This document shows, one piece after another, positions 1 to 34,052 of a stretch of 57,941 nucleotides of DNA. The notes below the pieces were generated by a model. It made no database searches. It had not been told where the DNA came from and saw only the letters and a list, made by a program, of their open reading frames with translations. The stretch is taken from NCBI RefSeq assembly GCF_000227725.2, contig NZ_MU255056.1, forward strand, positions 2,511,992 through 2,569,932. The letters run 5' to 3'. The DNA comes from Thiorhodospira sibirica ATCC 700588 (lineage in GTDB: Bacteria; Pseudomonadota; Gammaproteobacteria; Ectothiorhodospirales; Ectothiorhodospiraceae). Each line of letters starts with the position of its first letter. The stretch's first letter is position 1. The position numbers were made by a program, and so were the translations under genes.

Positions 1-512
1 GTTCTTCGCTGTAGGCGGGGAGAAAGCCGGTATCCAAGCCTTCACTGGCGCCAAGTTCATGGAGCATTCGCAGGATGCTGGGTTGGGAGGGTTTGAGAAT
101 GTGTACCGAGGTTTTGAGTAATTCGCCCTTGGCGCAAACCCGCTCAATCAGGGGTGTCACCGGGCTGGGTGGGAAGAAGACGGTGGCGGGTGGGGAAAAT
201 GGCGGTGAGGCGGTGGCTGTCTGCTGGGCTTCGAGTTCTTGCCAGCGAGCGATGATACGCATCCTCAAGACGGGATCATAACCACTGACCAAGGTTAGTG
301 TAGTTAATTTATCCAGCCGGTACTGCGTTCGTTTTTTCCTTGCACATCAACATAAGATTCTGATTCACAATGCCAATCCAGATTTGGATCGGCCTCCAGG
401 CGCGTAATCATGGTGCGTATGTCCCGCAGGATATGCGGATGTTGTTTCCGGTCAGGTCCGCAATTTCGCGGCTGGTCATGGATAATGCCGGATTCAAGAA
501 CGTTTGAGACAT
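1..512 (-). pseudogene. Rha-family phage-type regulator, frameshifted, cut by window edge
   Basis: The reading frame starts at the ATG at 512 with GGAG upstream (start MSQTFLNPALSMTSREIADL) and has to be followed through three frames. The pieces join as a DNA-binding-type segment (HILRDIRTMI), then NLDWHCESESYVDVQGK, then YRLDKLTTLTLVSGYD followed by RMRIIARWQELE. The last segment is characteristic of Rha/pRha-type phage regulators. Each break is restored by adding one A to a short A run (near 462-464 and near 333-338), so this is either a decayed gene or two homopolymer sequencing errors. After the Rha core comes a proline-rich linker and a C-terminal segment that continues beyond base 1. 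Rha proteins are usually prophage-borne; no other phage gene is visible here. Confidence 0.72.
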
Positions 513-797
513 GAGCAAGTTTCTCCGTAAATTTAAGGATAAACCGCCGTATATAGTGCAAAGTATAGGGACGGCGGATTGCGCAAGGTTTGCACTACCG
601 TTACAGAGAAACCGGCCACCGGGAAGGTGCCCTGCGCAAGCCACCACAGCGAAATGATAGGCAGGAAAAAACGCGCCGGATTATGGCGAGCGTGGGTTAT
701 GGTCTCTGTTTTCGGGGTGCAAATCCCGACACCATTTACACGGTGCATGGCAAGCTTAGGCAAGCCCATTCGCCCTGTCAACCGGGTGTGAAGGAGC

Positions 798-897: not shown

Positions 898-918
898 GCG
901 ACACCGGGAAGGTGTCGC
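898..918. repeat. 8-bp hairpin with 5-base loop, downstream of DUF1566 gene
   Basis: Arms GCGACACC and GGTGTCGC with loop GGGAA. It lies about 20 bases beyond the stop codon of the DUF1566 gene at 938-1957 (minus strand). The intervening segment is repeated beside the DUF1566 gene at 33369, which also ends in an 8-bp, 5-base-loop hairpin of different arm sequence. It may act as a transcript end, or as the downstream hairpin known to aid DGR retrohoming; similar hairpins elsewhere in the window have no such gene beside them. Confidence 0.7.
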
Positions 919-937
919 CACGAAGGCCAAAAGCCCA

Positions 938-1957
938 TTACTGTCGCGCGCGAACGAGACGCACCCGGTAAGCATAGTACTTGTAGTAATGGCTGACAGG
1001 ACCGTTATCGAAGCCCACGCACCACGCATGGCCACTATTATAGGCATTGGGCGAGGACGACCAAAACCAACTAGATGGCGTGTTGGGAAAGGCCTGTTCT
1101 ACGATGGTGGGACGGTGGTAACCGCCACTACAGAATGTAAAGTCAGCCTCCATGCCAAATTCCTGTGGTAAACCTGTGGAGCAGTAGACCAGGCTGCGCA
1201 GTTCGGTGCGATTAGGCAGACGAAAGCCTCCGGGAGGAGTCAGGGCGATGGCATCGTCCCAGGTAAACCTGCCAGCCTCGCCATCACAGGATTGCTGCGC
1301 TGAATTCCAGGTCTGCCCCACGGAGCAGCGCTGCCATTCCAGGTCGGTGGTGATGTCGCGGATGATGGAGCCGTCTTCGATGGGTAGATAGCGCCCGGCG
1401 ATCAGATCATCATCCGGGCTGGAATCCGGTGTGCGAACGAGGCGTACCGAGCGATTATTATCAATAGATTCATAATTAACATAACCAGCATTAAAGGTTA
1501 CATGCCACGCATAACCACCATCTCTTGCATAGGGCGATGATGACCAAAATGCTGTTGATGCTGTATTGGGAAAAACAGTGATATTAGCAGATGGAATACA
1601 GCTTCTTTCTACAATAGACATCAGTTCACGACGATTAGGTAAACGCCAATCTGTATAGCCTGCAAATTCAGTGTTTTGTGCGGTTTGCAGGGCACCAACC
1701 CAGGTGTAAGTTGATGCATCACCAATACAGGTATTGTTATCCCATATTTGACCCAAACTGCAGCGCATCCACATCAAGCCCGTTTTGGTATGTGTAGCTA
1801 CACCATTTTCGTGCAATATAAAATCAGTGGTGGGAGTAGTAATGGGTACACTAGGATCTTGGCGCATACATATTACATCAGCTAGCACCGCAGCGGGCAA
1901 AGTGATTAACACCATCAACACGATGCCAAGCATATGGAATTTTATTCTTAAAAGCAT
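938..1957 (-). CDS. Secreted protein with two DUF1566/Lcl-type domains; C-terminal one carries a candidate DGR variable region
   Basis: A 339-residue protein with an N-terminal signal peptide (about residues 1-26, ending ...AVLADV). Two DUF1566 domains follow, roughly 45-175 and 188-336. Each has the family marks: GLMWMRC or DLEWQRC near the start, a WRLP or FRLP motif, FWSSSP and a closing VRLVR. The domain is a C-type-lectin-like module commonly used for extracellular binding; the ligand is unknown. The second domain is nearly identical at DNA level to two domains of the gene at 2119-5412 except in its last 33 codons, where changes are confined to AAY-type codons. The first domain uses different codons and lacks that pattern. 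It lies 161 bases downstream of the 2119-5412 gene on the same strand and may be co-transcribed with it. Confidence 0.85.
   Translation of the reverse strand: MLLRIKFHMLGIVLMVLITLPAAVLADVICMRQDPSVPITTPTTDFILHENGVATHTKTGLMWMRCSLGQIWDNNTCIGDASTYTWVGALQTAQNTEFAGYTDWRLPNRRELMSIVERSCIPSANITVFPNTASTAFWSSSPYARDGGYAWHVTFNAGYVNYESIDNNRSVRLVRTPDSSPDDDLIAGRYLPIEDGSIIRDITTDLEWQRCSVGQTWNSAQQSCDGEAGRFTWDDAIALTPPGGFRLPNRTELRSLVYCSTGLPQEFGMEADFTFCSGGYHRPTIVEQAFPNTPSSWFWSSSPNAYNSGHAWCVGFDNGPVSHYYKYYAYRVRLVRARQ
950..1048 (-). other. Candidate DGR variable region in DUF1566 domain (gene 938-1957)
   Basis: Residues 304-336, from the codon after FWSSSP to the end of RVRLVR. Compared with 4159-4257 and 3676-3774, 17 of 33 codons differ. 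In 15 of the 17 the third base is the same (C or T) in all three, and the other 16 codons are base-for-base identical. Variable codons here include AAT, TAT, GGC, TGC, GAT, AAC, CCT, AGC and TAC, all reachable from AAC or AAT by changing only adenines. The invariant end reads CGGGTGCGTCTCGTTCGC on the coding strand, a plausible initiation-of-homing segment. Confidence 0.75.
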
Positions 1958-2118
1958 TTTTCACGTTCTCTATTGTTCGTCGGGGTAAGCGTCAACGCTT
2001 GATTGATACTATAACGCTGATTAAAAGCATCAATATCGCTCCAGTAAGTAAATTTTGATAAGTGGAGCTGATGATTTTCTATGATTCCAAGGTGAATCTG
2101 AAAAATAATTCTAAAATA

Positions 2119-5100
2119 TTAGCGTATCACACGAACGAGACGTATCCGTGCACGTTGTTCAGCTACCTTTTCATAATCGTTGACTAGGCCATCATAAAAT
2201 CTCACACCCCATGCATACATATTTATAATGGACGTAGATGTGGATGACCAAAATACACTGGAACTCCCCTCAGGGAAGTAGTGAATATCAATAGCAGGAT
2301 CAAAGCGCCCGGCATGGACAAGAGATTCCAGTTCATTGATGTCTGGAAGACGCCAGTCATTGGCGCCACACAAGCCCTGAGCGTTTACCGCTTGCACATA
2401 ACCTAGTGTGTCGCAAGCACTGCCTACGCACCTACCGCCATTTTGTGTGCCTGCATCTCCGCCGTTGGTGTTGGGATCGGGGTTGTACCAGGAATAGGTG
2501 TGACCATGATAACGCAGGGTAGACTCATTGACCTTGACCTCCCAGATCAGACCGGTGACGTTATCTTGTACGCATGACCAGCGCGTGCCATCGGTTTCAT
2601 TGCCGCCATCACTCCAAGGCATGTTCTGAATGGCCAGCGGTCTGCCGTTGGCATCGAGCTTGGTGTAGTCAAAGCCTGCCGCACCTGCGCCTATCTTTTG
2701 CAGTTGCCCTTGGCGTGCTAAGGCATCGCGGCCATGATCACCATCTTGGTCTGGAAAACCGGCAACCGGGCAGCTCAGGTTATTGCTGCTGTTATCGGCA
2801 CACCAGTCAATGCCGGTGTCGTTTAACGGGATAGCACTGTTGATAACGACAGATGGGGGTTCAGTCTCAATTGCCTGCGGGGTGGCCGCAACTGCTCCGG
2901 TCAATATGGGGCTGTCGATGCCTTGGCCTTCAACTTGCAATACCACGTAATATTCCCTGCTATTATCCAGGCCACGGAGGGTGTAACCACTGCTGACATT
3001 GCTAAACATCTGGCCATTGGCGCAACGGCTGTAGTTACTGATATCGCAGTTGGCATCGCTTGAAATGAACAGGTTGTAGACATAGCCTGATGTTTCATTC
3101 CATGAAGCGGTGATCTGGCTATCACCGGCCTCAAGCCTTAACTCAGGTAGAGGGTGTTCAACCTCGTTTGGATTGCGAACGAGACGCACCCGGCTTGCAT
3201 TGTCTTGGAAAGATCCGAAGATGCTACCGTTATCGAAGTCTACCTGCCACGCGCTAGTATCCATGCCAGAGCCTCCACTGTAGGATGACGACCAGAAATA
3301 AACGTAAGGTATAGGCATATTGGGAAATGCATGTTGCACGATGGTAGGACGCTGGAAATCGCCACTACAGCGTGTAAAGTTTGCATCCATACCAAATTCC
3401 TGTGGTTGGCCGGTGGAGCAATAGACCAGGCTACGTAACTCGGTAATATCAGGCAGGCGGAAACCTCTGGAATCTGTCAGTTGCATAGCATTATCAAGGG
3501 GATATCTAACCCAGTCAGCCTCGCCATCACAGGATTGCTGTGTGGCGTTCCAGGTCTGCCCCACGGCGCAACGCTGCCATTCCAGGTCGGTGGTGATGTC
3601 GCGGATGATGGAGCCGTCTTCGATGGGCAGGTAGCGCCCGGCGATTAGATCATCATCCGGGCTGGAATCCGGCGCGCGAACGAGACGCACCCGGAGAGTA
3701 TTGCTCTTGTAGCCGTTGAGGACACGACCGTAATGGAAGTCCACGCCCCACGCATGGACACTACTATAGGCATGGGGCGAGGACGACCAAAACCAACTAG
3801 ATGGCGTGTTGGGAAAGGCCTGTTCTACGATGGTCGGACGCTGGTAATCGCCACTGCACGCTGAAAAATTTGCATCCGTTCCGAACTCGTGTGGTTGACC
3901 TGTGGAGCAGTAGACCAGGCCGCGTAGTTCGGTGATATCAGGTAAACGAAAGCCACCGGGGGCAGTTAGGGTAACGGCATTGTCCCAGTTAAAGGTACTA
4001 GCGTCGCCATCACAGGATTGCAGCACTGCATTCCAGGTTTGCCCCACGGCGCAGCGCTGCCATTCCAGGTCGGTGGTGATATCGCGGATGATGGAGCCGT
4101 CTTCGATGGGCAGGTAGCGCCCGGCAATTAGGTCGTCATCAACGGTGGGCTGCGGCGCGCGAACGAGACGCACCCGGCTTGCAAAGCTCTTGCTGCTGCC
4201 GCTGACACGACCGCTATTGAAGCTCACGAGCCACGCATGGAGACTATTACCGGCATCGGGCGAAGACGACCAAAACCCAAGAGATGGCGTATTGGGAAAA
4301 GCCTGTTCTACGATGGTCGGACGCTGGTAATCGCCACTGCACATTGTATAGTCTGCATCCATACCAAATTCTTGTGGTAAACCTGTGGAGCAGTAGACCA
4401 GGCTGCGTAGTTCGGTGATATCCGGTAGACGAAAACCACCCGGGGCGGTCAGGGCAACGGCACTGCCCCAGCCAAACCCGCTAGTGTCGCCATCACAGCT
4501 TCGCTGCGTGGCATTCCAGGTTTGCCCCACGGCGCAGCGTTGCCATTCCAGGTTGGTGGTGATATCCCTGATGATGGAGCCGTCTTCGATGGGTAGGTAG
4601 CGCCCGGCGATCAATTGCGCCGTGGCGGCGTGTGGCGTGCCACTCACTACCGCACTGGGGCTGCTTTCAACCGTGTTGCGTTGACTGGTTAAGACAACAT
4701 AATAGGTCGTGCCATTGTTAAGCCCGCTTACACGATGCTGTGTCACATTTCCCAGGACTACTCGCTGCGTAAAACTGTTATTGACATCTGGATGGATATT
4801 GGAATCCGTGCCGTAATACAGCACATACGCTGTGGCATTACTGACAGCATTCCAGGACAACTCGATACTTTGATCGGCTGCCACGGCCACAAGATTTCCC
4901 GGTGCCGGAGGTGGTTGTGTTGTTTCCACCACAGGCAAGGTGTTTGCCACAATCTGGCCATTTTGATCCACCTGAATGCGCGTATCGCTGCTGTTCTCAC
5001 CTACCTTGATGCGTGGCGTTTCCCCTTGGCGGTTGACGGGTAAGCTGAGCATGAGATTACCCGCATGGCGAATCTCTACGCGGCCCGTATTGACATTGAA

Positions 5101-5412
5101 GCGGTATGTGTATTGATCGCTGTGTGGCAGGGTGAATTGCGCATGACGGGCAATAGCGGCGCTTAGATGTGCGATGCGGGCGTTGGTATCTTGCAGGATA
5201 ATATCCAGCGTACCGTATTGGGTGTTAGGCCGTGGGTAAAGGTTGACGGTGCCACTGATCCAAACGGTGGTATTGGTGCTGTCAAGGTAAGCCGTGCCGC
5301 CATTTAACTGTAAAACGGTTGCCTGTACAGCGGGCAGGCTACTTAAGCCGAATAAGAGCAGTAGAAAGACGATGGTATGCCGTAGGCGGTGTTGGGATCG
5401 TAGTGAGTCCAT
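2119..5412 (-). CDS. Large secreted multi-domain protein: FN3 plus four DUF1566/Lcl domains, two with candidate DGR variable regions
   Basis: A 1097-residue protein. A signal peptide (about 1-31, VFLLLLFGLSSLPAVQA) is followed by a beta-rich N-terminal region (32-160) and a fibronectin type III domain (about 168-262, ELSWNAVSNATAYVLYYG). Three tandem DUF1566 domains follow (about 267-418, 428-579, 588-747), joined by near-identical linkers ending LIAGRYLPIEDGSIIRDITT. Then come a second FN3 (about 752-846) and a longer Lcl-type domain at the C-terminus (about 855-1097, NDWRLPDINELESLV, VFWSST, IRLVR). The layout suggests a surface-exposed or secreted binding protein. Domains 1 and 2 carry DGR-like hypervariable cassettes; domain 3 and the C-terminal domain do not. 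Internal variable regions are unusual, since most known DGR targets vary only at the C-terminus. Cysteine pairs (QRC...SC; YCSTG...CSG) recur in each repeat. Confidence 0.85.
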   Translation of the reverse strand: MDSLRSQHRLRHTIVFLLLLFGLSSLPAVQATVLQLNGGTAYLDSTNTTVWISGTVNLYPRPNTQYGTLDIILQDTNARIAHLSAAIARHAQFTLPHSDQYTYRFNVNTGRVEIRHAGNLMLSLPVNRQGETPRIKVGENSSDTRIQVDQNGQIVANTLPVVETTQPPPAPGNLVAVAADQSIELSWNAVSNATAYVLYYGTDSNIHPDVNNSFTQRVVLGNVTQHRVSGLNNGTTYYVVLTSQRNTVESSPSAVVSGTPHAATAQLIAGRYLPIEDGSIIRDITTNLEWQRCAVGQTWNATQRSCDGDTSGFGWGSAVALTAPGGFRLPDITELRSLVYCSTGLPQEFGMDADYTMCSGDYQRPTIVEQAFPNTPSLGFWSSSPDAGNSLHAWLVSFNSGRVSGSSKSFASRVRLVRAPQPTVDDDLIAGRYLPIEDGSIIRDITTDLEWQRCAVGQTWNAVLQSCDGDASTFNWDNAVTLTAPGGFRLPDITELRGLVYCSTGQPHEFGTDANFSACSGDYQRPTIVEQAFPNTPSSWFWSSSPHAYSSVHAWGVDFHYGRVLNGYKSNTLRVRLVRAPDSSPDDDLIAGRYLPIEDGSIIRDITTDLEWQRCAVGQTWNATQQSCDGEADWVRYPLDNAMQLTDSRGFRLPDITELRSLVYCSTGQPQEFGMDANFTRCSGDFQRPTIVQHAFPNMPIPYVYFWSSSYSGGSGMDTSAWQVDFDNGSIFGSFQDNASRVRLVRNPNEVEHPLPELRLEAGDSQITASWNETSGYVYNLFISSDANCDISNYSRCANGQMFSNVSSGYTLRGLDNSREYYVVLQVEGQGIDSPILTGAVAATPQAIETEPPSVVINSAIPLNDTGIDWCADNSSNNLSCPVAGFPDQDGDHGRDALARQGQLQKIGAGAAGFDYTKLDANGRPLAIQNMPWSDGGNETDGTRWSCVQDNVTGLIWEVKVNESTLRYHGHTYSWYNPDPNTNGGDAGTQNGGRCVGSACDTLGYVQAVNAQGLCGANDWRLPDINELESLVHAGRFDPAIDIHYFPEGSSSVFWSSTSTSIINMYAWGVRFYDGLVNDYEKVAEQRARIRLVRVIR
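3676..3774 (-). other. Candidate DGR variable region, internal, DUF1566 repeat 2
   Basis: Residues 547-579 of the 1097-residue protein. Variable codons are CAT, TAT, AGT, GTC, GGC, GAC, CAT, TAC, CGT, CTC, AAC, GGC, TAC, AGC, AAT, ACT, CTC; the codons between them match the other two cassettes exactly. Hydrophobic CTC and GTC beside polar TAC and CAT at aligned sites is what random replacement of two adenines in AAC/AAT gives, and is not expected from ordinary divergence. Confidence 0.75.
4159..4257 (-). other. Candidate DGR variable region, internal, DUF1566 repeat 1
   Basis: Residues 386-418. Variable codons include GAT, GGT, CTC, CTC, AGC, AAT, AGC, CGT, AGC, GGC, AGC, AGC, AGC, TTT, GCA and AGC. 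Invariant codons GCC, CAT-GCG-TGG, GTG, TTC, GGT, GTC, AAG and the closing CGGGTGCGTCTCGTTCGC are the same as in the cassettes at 950-1048 and 3676-3774. Confidence 0.75.
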
Positions 5413-25475: not shown

Positions 25476-28352
25476 TTAACCGGCCTGTTTGACCCGCATG
25501 TACCATTCGACCAGGCGACGTACCTGGCGTTCAGTATAGCCCCGCGTCACCATGCGCTCGACAAATTCATGGTGTTTGCGGTCCACATCTGAATCGGCCT
25601 TGGCGCCAAAACTGATCACCGGCAGCAGGTCTTCAACATGGGCAAACATGCGTTTTTCAATGACTTCGCGGATTTTTTCATACGCCGTCCATTCCGGCAT
25701 TTCCCCCCCCTTGCTGGCGCGGGCGCGTAGCGCAAATTTGACCACCTCATTGCGAAAATCCTTGGGGTTGGCAATGCCGGCGGGCTTTTCAGTTTTGGTC
25801 AATTCCTGATTGAGCGCCTGACGATCCAGCAGTTGTCCGGTGTCCGGGTCTTTGAAATCATGGTCTTCGATCCAGGCATCGGCATAGGCCACATAGCGCT
25901 CAAACAGATTCTGCCCAAAGTCGTGATAAGACTCCAGATAGGCCTTCTGAATCTCATTGCCGATGAAATCGGCATAGCGCGGTGCCAAATCAGCCTTGAT
26001 GATTTCCAGATAGCGGCGTTCGGTTTCCTCGGGGAATTGTTCACGGCGCAAGGCCTGCTCCAGCATATACAGCAAATGCACCGGATCGGCAGCCACCTCG
26101 CGGGTGTCGTAGTTAAAGGTCTCGGAGAGTACCTTGAAAGCAAAGCGGGTGGAAATTCCGTCCATGCCCTCATCCACCCCGGCGACATCTTTGTATTCCT
26201 GCAAGGATTTGGCACGCGGGTCAGTGTCTTTGAGGCTCTCGCCGTTATAGATGCGCATCTTGGAATACAGACTGGAATTTTCATGCTCTTTGAGGCGGGT
26301 GAGCACCGAAAAACGCGCCAGAATCTCCAAGGTTGAGGGCGCACAAGGGGCTTGCGCCAGCTCGCTGGTACTGACCAGCTTTTGATAAATCAGCTCCTCT
26401 TCGGTGACGCGCAGACAATAGGGCACCTTGATCACCGAAATGCGATCAATGAAAGCCTCGTTGTTTTTATTGTGCTTGAAGGTCTGCCATTCTGATTCGT
26501 TGGAGTTGCCGGTAATCAGCACCTTGCCATTGCGGCGCGCAATCAGCGTATGGTTCGGCGTCTCCAGGCACCAGACCATGCCGGCATAGTCAACCATTCC
26601 CTTGTTAACGTTGTCACTGCGCACCTGATTCACGCCCAGCCGGGTGTTGAGCATGAACACATCGGCATAACCTTCTTTACGACTGATGGCGCAGGTCGTT
26701 TTGCTGCCGCTCAGTGCCGCCAGTTCCTGCAGGAGATCACGATGGAAAGGCACATTGGTGCTGAGTTGGTAGTGATTCTCCCGACTGTTTTGCCCCTGAC
26801 TGCCATCAGTGATGCCCCATTCCTGCAAGAGTATCGTGGCTTGCCGGGCCGACAGGAGGCGGTGGATTTCCGTGAGTTGCTTGGTGAATTTGGCCGACAT
26901 GCGCTTGACATAAAATGCCGTGGTGCCGTCCGGAGATTCCTCACCCTGCTGCCAGGAAAAATCCAGTCGGGACAGCAGTTCCTGGAAGGCTTTGATCTTG
27001 CGGTCTTTATTGAAGTGAAAGCGATAATTAAGACGTCCGTCGTTGGCAATGTAATGGACCGAGCCTTCGGTCACACACCAGATATGGAAGCGTAACTCAT
27101 CATCACTGGCGTAGTAATCGAGATCCGGGCGCTCCAAAACGCCGGAGACGGGCAGATGTGCCCCCTTGACGAAGAAGTCCTCGGCGAGCGTTTCCTTATA
27201 AGAACCATAGGACTCGTAGATGATCTTGTGATTCGGCGTGACGAGGTGATCAGCCGCACTGCTGGAGAGGTGGTACATCGGGCCTTCGTAATACATTTCG
27301 TATTTCTTCAGCGCCGGTTGATATTCGATCTTGCCAGTCTCGCGATTAAGGGTGGCGATCAGATCATCGACCTCGACCGCTTCACGGCGCTTCCATCCCC
27401 CGACGGTGAGGATTTCGGTATCCTCGCTAAAGCAGTGCGCCATGATGATACCTTGAAAGGGAATGGCACCAATGTTTTCCGTGCCCACATAGTTGCTTTC
27501 CTGGGTGGCTGTGAGCAGCGGATGGAGCATTTTGATCGGCGCCTTAAACATCTCCACAAATTCCAAAATGCCCTGATTGGCGCGGTTCAGGCCGCCGGAG
27601 TAGCTGTAGGCATCGGTGTCATTTTGGCTATACAGCTCAAGCTTGCGGATATCCACCTTGCCCACCAGCGAGGAAATATCCTGATTATTTTCATCCCCCG
27701 GCTCGGTTTTGGACACGGCAATCTGGCGCAATTTGGACGGATACAGCCGCACCACACTAAAGCGGGAAATATCGCCGCCCAGTTCATCTAAGCGTTTGAC
27801 CGCCCACGGTGAAATTAAGCCCGTAAGACGGCGCGCCGGGATACCAAAACGCTCCTCCAGCAGCGGCCCCATCGTGACCGGATCAAACAGCCCCAGCGGG
27901 CTTTCAAATACCGGCGAAAGCTCATCGCCGACCTTGAGCACATAGATCGGATGCTTTTCCATGAGGCTTTTGAGGCGTTCTGCCAGCGAGGATTTGCCTC
28001 CGCCCACCGGCCCCAGCAGATACAAAATCTGCTTGCGCTCTTCCAGCCCCTGGGCGGCATAGCGGAAAAAGCCCACGATGCGCTCAATGGTTTCCTCCAT
28101 CCCGTAAAAATCTTCAAAGGCCGGATAGAGCTTGATGGTGCGGTTCATGAAAATCCGCCCGAGCCGCTCATCCTGGGCCGTATCGACCACCGTTGGCTCA
28201 CCGATGGCCGCCACAATGCGCTCGGCGGCACTGGCATAGTGCAATGGGTCATCCTTGCAGGCTTCAAGGTATTGTGCCAGGGACAGCTCCGCTTCCTGAC
28301 GTTTTTGATAATGACGCGCATAGTGCGCGATTAAAGTCTCTGCCGAATCCAT
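25476..28352 (-). CDS. prkA: PrkA/YeaG serine protein kinase, intein-containing precursor
   Basis: A 958-residue precursor made of 648 residues of PrkA/YeaG interrupted by a 310-residue intein (residues 307-616). The host protein has the PrkA AAA+ domain with Walker A GPVGGGKS (114-121), then the C-terminal kinase-like domain. After excision the junction reads GIIMAH-SNESEWQTF, matching the uninterrupted E. coli sequence type (AHSNESEW), so the mature protein is predicted to be intact. YeaG is a cytoplasmic stress-induced kinase acting with YeaH. Its gene is divergent from the response-regulator gene at 28617 across a 264-base gap. Confidence 0.93.
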   Translation of the reverse strand: MDSAETLIAHYARHYQKRQEAELSLAQYLEACKDDPLHYASAAERIVAAIGEPTVVDTAQDERLGRIFMNRTIKLYPAFEDFYGMEETIERIVGFFRYAAQGLEERKQILYLLGPVGGGKSSLAERLKSLMEKHPIYVLKVGDELSPVFESPLGLFDPVTMGPLLEERFGIPARRLTGLISPWAVKRLDELGGDISRFSVVRLYPSKLRQIAVSKTEPGDENNQDISSLVGKVDIRKLELYSQNDTDAYSYSGGLNRANQGILEFVEMFKAPIKMLHPLLTATQESNYVGTENIGAIPFQGIIMAHCFSEDTEILTVGGWKRREAVEVDDLIATLNRETGKIEYQPALKKYEMYYEGPMYHLSSSAADHLVTPNHKIIYESYGSYKETLAEDFFVKGAHLPVSGVLERPDLDYYASDDELRFHIWCVTEGSVHYIANDGRLNYRFHFNKDRKIKAFQELLSRLDFSWQQGEESPDGTTAFYVKRMSAKFTKQLTEIHRLLSARQATILLQEWGITDGSQGQNSRENHYQLSTNVPFHRDLLQELAALSGSKTTCAISRKEGYADVFMLNTRLGVNQVRSDNVNKGMVDYAGMVWCLETPNHTLIARRNGKVLITGNSNESEWQTFKHNKNNEAFIDRISVIKVPYCLRVTEEELIYQKLVSTSELAQAPCAPSTLEILARFSVLTRLKEHENSSLYSKMRIYNGESLKDTDPRAKSLQEYKDVAGVDEGMDGISTRFAFKVLSETFNYDTREVAADPVHLLYMLEQALRREQFPEETERRYLEIIKADLAPRYADFIGNEIQKAYLESYHDFGQNLFERYVAYADAWIEDHDFKDPDTGQLLDRQALNQELTKTEKPAGIANPKDFRNEVVKFALRARASKGGEMPEWTAYEKIREVIEKRMFAHVEDLLPVISFGAKADSDVDRKHHEFVERMVTRGYTERQVRRLVEWYMRVKQAG
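26505..27434 (-). mobile_element. Intein inserted in prkA AAA+ domain
   Basis: Residues 307-616 of the precursor. It begins with the nucleophile Cys307 (CFSEDTEILTVGGW, block A), has block B with the TxxH motif (HLVTPNHKII), and ends with block F (GMVWCLETPNHTLIARRNG) and block G (KVLITGN) before Ser617 of the C-extein. The last residue is Asn616; the usual penultimate His is replaced by Gly, a variation seen in some active inteins. A middle segment (about 417-560) has one LAGLIDADG-like stretch (FHIWCVTEGSVHYI), probably a divergent or decaying homing endonuclease. Confidence 0.9.
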
Positions 28353-33368: not shown

Positions 33369-34052
33369 TTACTGTCGCGCACGAACGAGACGCACCCGGT
33401 ACTGCGCGATCTTGTAGCGGTTACCGACATTACCGTACCCGAAGCTCACGTACCACGCATCATCAGCAGTATAACTGGCATAGGGCGAAGACGACCAAAA
33501 GAAATCAGCAGGTGTTTTTGGAAAGGCCAGCGAATCAATGGTTGGCTTGTGATAGTCACCTTCACAACGCCCAGAACCTCCTACAGGCTCGCCCGTTGCA
33601 TCAAATTCCAAAGGTTTTTGTCGGCCAGAGGAACAATACACCAGGCTGAATAATTCCTTGAGTGTCGGGAGGCGCCAATCCGTATAACCGGCATAGCCAC
33701 CGGAGGCATTCAGCGCCTGCGCGGCCTGCAAGGCCGCATCCCATGTATATTCATTGGCCTTGCCGATACAGCGCCCGTTTTCCCAGGTTTGTCCCAGACT
33801 GCAACGCATCCACTGCAGCCCCGTTCGGACATCCAGCACCGTGCCGTCATATAAATCCTGGTAACGTCGAGAACCGATAAAGCTGCGTTCATGGGCAAGT
33901 AGTTTCTCTAACTCCTCTACCCGCTTTAATGCGGCCTCATGATCTTGCAATAACTTCATCGTCCCCGCGCTGTCGCCGCTAGGAGTGGCACACATCGCCT
34001 CCAGAATTTGTGCATCTATCTCAATATCAAATGCGGTACATAAACCCTGCAA
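33369..34052 (-). pseudogene. DUF1566/Lcl-domain protein, 3' part of a broken gene
   Basis: A 227-codon frame opening at a TTG. Residues 1-60 are helical (LLQDHEAALKRVEELEKLLAHE). One DUF1566 domain spans about 65-224 (GLQWMRCSLGQTW, YTDWRLPTLKELFSLVYC, FFWSSSPYA, RVRLVR). There is no signal peptide, unlike the two DUF1566 genes at the left end. Immediately upstream, in another frame, lies the segment at 34082-34255, which looks like the natural N-terminal part. A TAG and a frame change separate them, so the original gene is probably disrupted. Its last 33 codons partly follow the AAY-variable pattern, and the 3' flank is shared with the gene at 938. Confidence 0.65.
33381..33482 (-). other. 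Possible diverged DGR variable region (gene at 33369)
   Basis: Residues 191-224. Many codons at the variable sites end in C or T (TAT, AGT, TAC, GAT, AGC, AAT, GGT, AAC, CGC), and CGGGTGCGTCTCGTTCG is kept, but GGG, GCG and CAG break the rule and there is one extra codon. It may derive from a different template or have drifted. Confidence 0.45.

What the first reader, a model, noticed from the sequence alone, without database searches (positions are those of the whole stretch)
950..4257. Three DUF1566 cassettes with a DGR-type adenine mutagenesis signature
The cassettes at 950-1048, 3676-3774 and 4159-4257 align without gaps over 33 codons. Sixteen codons are identical at every base. Seventeen vary, and in 15 of these the third base is constant (C or T) while the first two take any base, such as AAT/GAT/CAT, GGC/CTC/GTC and TAC/AGC/CTC. 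Every residue seen at the variable sites is reachable from AAC or AAT by changing adenines only. No stop, Lys, Gln, Glu, Met or Trp appears there. The cassettes end in an identical CGGGTGCGTCTCGTTCGC, where an initiation-of-homing site would be. This matches variable regions of diversity-generating retroelements, whose targets have C-type-lectin-like folds. The window has no reverse transcriptase or template, so this would be a trans-acting DGR with several targets.
Basis: partly seen in the sequence, partly recalled or inferred. Interest (0 to 1): 0.93.

Follow-up and report, generated by a model that had tools for sequence, protein, structure and literature searches.

The report
Remote targets of a DGR
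Three hypervariable gene segments in this window are rewritten copies of one template that lies, with its mutating reverse transcriptase, about 1.2 million bases away in the same bacterial genome; this is a real and complete protein-diversifying system of a kind already well known.

Summary
The genome has a complete diversity-generating retroelement (DGR) about 1.23 Mb from the window: long target, avd, template repeat (TR), reverse transcriptase (RT), short target. The TR carries AAY at 15 of the 17 variable codons (CAT and ACA at the others). Over the 81-base core, the window cassettes differ from it at 18-20 of 37 adenines and at 0-1 of 44 other bases. One TR serves seven variable regions (VRs): two beside the RT and five elsewhere, three of them in this window. 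Adenine-site states are independent between all VRs, so each was mutagenised separately. Two window VRs are internal, in tandem Lcl_C (DUF1566) domains of one 1097-aa protein; the rest of those domains is 86% identical while non-adenine VR bases are 62/62 identical, so the template has overwritten them since the duplication. The modelled domain is C-type-lectin-like. Remote targets, DUF1566 targets and several VRs in one ORF are all published: a new member of a known kind. Modest extras: a non-homed sister domain, a drifted VR elsewhere in the window, and no downstream hairpin at internal VRs. Current activity is not shown: no reads were available.

The parts
938..1957 (-). Remote DGR target gene 1 (339 aa, signal-like N-terminus, two Lcl_C/DUF1566 domains; the C-terminal one carries the VR)
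   Evidence: ORF; Pfam PF07603, two stretches
945..1070 (-). VR5, C-terminal variable region (full TR-homologous tract; variable core 968-1048)
   Evidence: genome C4:2512936-2513061; 18 adenine and 0 non-adenine changes in the 81-base core
2119..5412 (-). Remote DGR target gene 2 (1097 aa, signal-like N-terminus, fn3, Lcl_C domains); its N-terminus is nearly the same as that of the 1728-aa cis target
   Evidence: ORF; Pfam; 1728-aa paralogue
3672..3796 (-). VR6, internal variable region in a tandem Lcl_C domain
   Evidence: 20 adenine and 1 other change in the 81-base core; the other change is at TR codon 20
4155..4277 (-). VR7, internal variable region in a tandem Lcl_C domain
   Evidence: 20 adenine and 1 other change in the 81-base core; the other change is at TR codon 20
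3175..3642 (-). Sister Lcl_C domain of the same ORF that is NOT kept matched to the template; shares CGGGTGCGTCTCGTTCGC and then diverges (AATCC)
   Evidence: 45/62 non-adenine sites, against 61-62/62 among homed domains
946..967 (-). Presumed initiation-of-mutagenic-homing block of VR5: CGGGTGCGTCTCGTTCGCGCGC, identical in the TR and all seven VRs (same block at the 3' end of VR6 and VR7)
   Evidence: site function inferred from BPP-1, not tested
898..935 (-). Conserved GGCTTTTGGCCTTCGTGGC after the stop codon of the C-terminal target, followed by the hairpin GCGACACC-TTCCC-GGTGTCGC
   Evidence: five genome copies of the motif, all after a VR, a VR relic or the drifted VR; hairpin; the hairpin is a dispersed genome repeat
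33369..34052 (-). Related Lcl_C gene (227 aa), paralogue of remote target V3, with a drifted VR-like region (33376-33500) and one substitution in the homing block (CGT for CGC)

Best explanation
The cassettes are variable regions of remote (trans) targets of a chromosomal DGR. The TR RNA made at C4:1279048-1279173 is copied by the adjacent DGR RT with Avd; adenines in the template are misread at random. The mutated cDNA replaces VR sequence upstream of a matching GC-rich 3' block. One TR serves seven VRs: two cis targets (1728 aa and 191 aa), a 221-aa gene at C4:468.4 kb, a broken fragment on contig C2, and three VRs in two window genes. In the 1097-aa window protein, two tandem internal Lcl_C domains are each diversified separately. 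Most targets look exported (signal-like N-termini) and C-type-lectin-like, so probably ligand-binding surface or secreted proteins. Shown by sequence: TR, RT, Avd, adenine-confined differences, independence of the VRs, and purging of non-adenine differences. Inferred: the homing chemistry (from BPP-1), ligand binding, localisation and present-day activity.
For: TR found with AAY at the variable codons. Hypergeometric P for adenine bias is 3e-10 to 4e-7 for each of seven VRs; adenine outcomes (without V4) A 100, G 65, T 39, C 16. RT: RVT_1, phrog_1423, IGNLTSQ motif, best PDB sequence match 8ub7 at 5e-29 ((I/V/L)GxxxSQ as DGR hallmark: PMC3521204). Avd: PF22296 bAvd and phrog_3206 'Avd protein of DGR'. 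The constant-base pattern matches exactly seven places in the genome (TR and six VRs), none in the reversed-pattern control and none in 39 relatives. 30 of the 33 RT relatives scanned carry their own adenine-biased TR/VR pair. Tandem domains: 85-86% identical upstream, VR non-adenine sites 61-62/62, adenine sites 12-18/37. No VR pair shares more adenine states than a site-wise shuffle gives. Fold: Lcl C-terminal domain 8q4e Z 12.0, snake C-type lectins Z about 9, Major Tropism Determinant Z 8.
Against: One assembled genome only; no read-level or strain variation was seen. Five of the six VRs that have the position carry C where the TR now has T at codon 20, so most VRs may not have been rewritten there since the TR changed; only VR5 matches. 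The internal VRs lack the conserved sequence and hairpin found after the C-terminal VRs. The structure model is of middling confidence (pLDDT 76), and Foldseek E-values are weak.
Confidence: 0.96

Rival explanations
1. The window VRs are not rewritten by the DGR directly; they were copied from cis VRs by segmental duplication or gene conversion and then stayed.
For: The window locus is a paralogous copy of the cis target region: near-identical N-termini of the 1097- and 1728-aa proteins, and similar flanks.
Against: No pair of VRs shares more adenine states than a site-wise shuffle (largest 20/37, P of the maximum 0.84). The tandem domains are 14% diverged upstream yet 62/62 identical at non-adenine VR sites (chance about 1e-4 at the upstream rate).
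Confidence: 0.04
2. The DGR rewrote these VRs in the past but is now silent; the VRs are frozen variants.
For: Most VRs keep C at codon 20 where the TR has T; V4 is a broken fragment with a further non-adenine change; the gene at 33369-34052 has drifted.
Against: RT, Avd and TR are intact. Six VRs have at most one non-adenine difference in the 81-base core, and VR5 carries the present TR base at codon 20, as expected of a recent rewrite.
Confidence: 0.2
3. Diversifying selection on an ordinary lectin-like domain, with no retroelement.
For: Ligand-binding surfaces can show many nonsynonymous changes (general knowledge).
Against: Changes are confined to template adenines, third positions are constant, and a matching TR with RT and Avd exists.
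Confidence: 0.005

Closest known systems
Bordetella phage BPP-1 DGR (bRT, Avd, TR, Mtd)
   Same: Same parts: DGR RT, Avd, TR with adenine mutagenesis, GC-rich shared 3' block, C-type-lectin-like target (Mtd Z about 8).
   Different: Chromosomal here; one TR serves seven VRs, most of them remote; two VRs are internal to an ORF; no conserved downstream hairpin in this RT clade.
DUF1566 (Lcl_C) target DGRs, e.g. Vibrio cholerae 1311-69 and Stenotrophomonas SKA14 (PMC6642488)
   Same: Same target domain, several VRs.
   Different: Here three of the VRs sit in two genes about 1.2 Mb from the template, two of them in tandem internal domains.
Thiohalocapsa sp. PB-PSB1 DGRs (PMC10907252)
   Same: Trans diversification of remote targets, inferred from perfect non-adenine match to a distant TR; some targets with several VRs; a short CLec-only plus a long target in one clade.
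   Different: PB-PSB1 targets are linked to NACHT/STAND and MoxR conflict systems; targets here look like exported Lcl_C proteins, without such domains in Pfam.
Multi-VR ORF with three tandem FGE-sulfatase paralogues, MarpuDRAFT_1558 (PMC3521204)
   Same: Several VRs in tandem paralogous domains of one ORF.
   Different: Other target domain; that paper left open whether the ORF is real, whereas here upstream divergence with VR purging argues that each VR was rewritten on its own.
Treponema denticola remote-target DGR (PMC4891356)
   Same: Core module plus remote target genes in one genome.
   Different: Unrelated organism and target layout.

Membership tests
Diversity-generating retroelement | RT of the DGR clade with (I/V/L)GxxxSQ in motif 4 | tested here: met
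   IGNLTSQ in the RT (sequence); RVT_1; phrog_1423; best PDB match 8ub7; motif definition PMC3521204
Diversity-generating retroelement | Template repeat near the RT, differing from VRs at adenines | tested here: met
Diversity-generating retroelement | Accessory protein Avd (or an alternative) | tested here: met
   PF22296 bAvd 45.8 bits over cut-off 40; phrog_3206 Avd
Diversity-generating retroelement | Shared 3' block (IMH) at VRs, with the TR counterpart differing | tested here: met
   22-24 bases shared, then GCGACAGTAAT after C-terminal VRs against GCGAGAGTGAA after the TR; site function not tested
Diversity-generating retroelement | Target domain with a C-type-lectin-like fold | tested here: met
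   middling model confidence; Lcl-CTD (DUF1566) reported as C-type-lectin-like in PMC11162425
Diversity-generating retroelement | Hairpin/cruciform just downstream of the VR (needed in BPP-1) | tested here: inconclusive
   8-9 bp stems 26-34 bases after VR1, VR2, VR3 and VR5, but most are dispersed genome repeats; none after VR6, VR7 or V4; 1 of 26 VRs of relatives, at background level
Diversity-generating retroelement | Ongoing RT-dependent adenine variation in a population | not testable with these tools
   no reads or second strain available
Remote (trans) target of a DGR | VR far from the RT and TR and matching that TR at non-adenine bases | tested here: met
   about 1.23 Mb apart on contig C4; 43-44 of 44 non-adenine core bases match

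The most novel reading that the evidence does not exclude
In this DGR clade, rewriting needs only a GC-rich block of about 22 bases (CGGGTGCGTCTCGTTCGCGCGC) and no downstream hairpin or gene 3' end, so VRs can live inside tandem repeat domains of a long protein and be diversified one by one; change of the last few bases of the block (domain ending at 3175; gene at 33369-34052) coincides with loss of rewriting.
Probability: 0.45. Interest if true: 0.45.

Novelty: new member of a known kind. Interest (0 to 1): 0.4.

Why it matters
It turns a pattern read from raw sequence into a verified multi-target DGR, with a natural experiment inside one genome: seven rewritten VRs, one non-homed sister domain, one drifted VR and one orphan 3' block, which together narrow down what a target needs. 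A protein with two separately diversified lectin-like domains would be an unusual receptor design. The principle itself is published.

Tried and rejected
The RT at C4:1983042 is not the DGR enzyme: it has QGMVLSP in place of the SQ motif and sits beside Cas2 and Cas1 genes. The RT at C4:2047981 matches only the 3' part of the RT domain and looks like a group-II-type fragment. The hairpins after VRs were first taken as BPP-1-like homing elements, but the two common ones occur 89 and 31 times in the genome and relatives lack such stems, so they are not counted as evidence. Patterns in viral contigs found nothing.

Full report
Observation. The three cassettes are at the stated places on the minus strand, and the codon count is exact: 16 constant, 17 variable, 15 of these with a constant third base. 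They lie in two neighbouring genes. Window 938-1957(-) encodes 339 aa with two Lcl_C (DUF1566, PF07603) domains; its VR is at the very C-terminus. Window 2119-5412(-) encodes 1097 aa with a fn3 domain and several Lcl_C domains; both of its VRs are internal.

Template and enzyme. The window is C4:2511992-2569932 of a 3.2 Mb, five-contig genome. The shared 3' block occurs at nine places. It lies between an avd gene (PF22296, phrog_3206 'Avd protein of DGR') and an RT with IGNLTSQ in motif 4 whose best PDB sequence match is 8ub7. That 8ub7 is the BPP-1 DGR RT is from my own knowledge; the tool labels it 'Reverse transcriptase'. The order on the minus strand is 1728-aa target (VR1), avd, TR, RT, 191-aa target (VR2). 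Other VRs: V3 in a 221-aa gene at C4:468.4 kb, V4 in a 62-aa fragment on contig C2, and V5-V7 in the window.

Statistics. In the 81-base core (37 adenines), each VR differs from the TR at 18-22 adenines and 0-2 other bases; hypergeometric P is 3e-10 to 4e-7 per VR. Five of the six non-adenine changes are one TR position (codon 20, third base): five VRs have C, while TR and V5 have T. I read this as a recent C-to-T change in the TR, with V5 rewritten since; that is inference. A pattern of the constant bases finds the TR and six VRs only, none in the reversed control and none in 39 relatives. States at adenines are as different between any two VRs as a site-wise shuffle predicts.

Internal VRs. 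The two tandem domains and the C-terminal domain of the neighbour are 85-86% identical upstream of the VR, with many synonymous differences, but 61-62/62 identical at non-adenine VR bases and only 12-18/37 at adenine sites. Ordinary descent does not give this; repeated overwriting from one template does. A fourth domain in the same ORF, ending at 3175, is not kept matched (45/62). It shares CGGGTGCGTCTCGTTCGC and then departs. A related gene at window 33369-34052 has a one-base change in the block and a VR that has drifted at non-adenine sites. All seven rewritten VRs have the 22-base block intact. This suggests, but does not prove, that the block is the needed site.

Hairpins. C-terminal VRs 1, 2, 3 and 5 have 8-9 bp stems 26-34 bases downstream (rate in random window stretches 1.2%). 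BPP-1 needs such a hairpin (PMC3240598). But the stems after VR2, VR3 and VR5 are copies of dispersed repeats, the internal VRs have none, and only 1 of 26 VRs in related DGRs has one, as in background.

Relatives. RT relatives at 40-46% identity occur in scattered Gammaproteobacteria and others. In 30 of the 33 loci scanned from that list, an adenine-biased TR/VR pair was found; many of the closest have the same long-target, TR, RT, short-target layout with C-terminal VRs. Within the family of the host only one of 36 other genomes has a full-length comparable RT (G016, 44%), so the element is sporadic.

Fold. A model of the VR5 domain (pLDDT 76, pTM 0.75) aligns best to the Legionella Lcl C-terminal domain (Z 12.0), then snake C-type lectins (about 9), invasin/intimin and Major Tropism Determinant (about 8). 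The Lcl paper also calls the Lcl C-terminal domain C-type-lectin-like (PMC11162425).

Known or new. DUF1566 is reported as the commonest named target domain, and 31 of 271 multi-VR DGRs have several VRs in one ORF (PMC6642488). Remote targets are described in PMC4891356 and PMC10907252, and a tandem-domain multi-VR ORF in PMC3521204. This is a new member of a known kind. Each VR could encode about 1.5e21 proteins, with only one template codon (AAG) able to give a stop. The organism was not identified, so I cannot say whether this element has been listed before.

Noticed in passing
window 25476-28352 (-): PrkA serine kinase gene whose AAA domain is interrupted by about 300 aa beginning CFSEDTEIL and ending VLITGN, which looks like an intein; Pfam sees only the PrkA parts.
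   Followed up: partly
G000:C4:1981542-1985153 (L001): A second RT (QGxxxSP type) directly beside cas2 and cas1 genes: an RT-associated CRISPR adaptation module in the same genome as the DGR.
   Followed up: partly
L031 6062-6994 (-), L032 3468-4247 (+), window 304-561 (-): Rha-type phage regulator (anti-repressor) genes next to DGR target loci or relics, and a fragment of the same sequence beside the window target; chance or a shared mobile history.
   Followed up: partly
G000:C4:1275351-1275380 (L031): Orphan 3' block: the full homing-site block and conserved downstream sequence follow an unrelated DUF4926 gene, with no VR body; probably a relic of a lost target.
   Followed up: partly
genome-wide, e.g. 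window 898-918: Two families of dispersed REP-like palindromes: GCGGCATCATCTTGATGCCGC (89 places, up to 2 mismatches) and GCGACACCTTCCCGGTGTCGC (31 places, up to 1 mismatch).
   Followed up: no
G000:C2:36129-36254 (L033): VR4 sits in a 62-aa gene fragment and already shows an extra non-adenine change (TTC to TCC): a decaying target.
   Followed up: no
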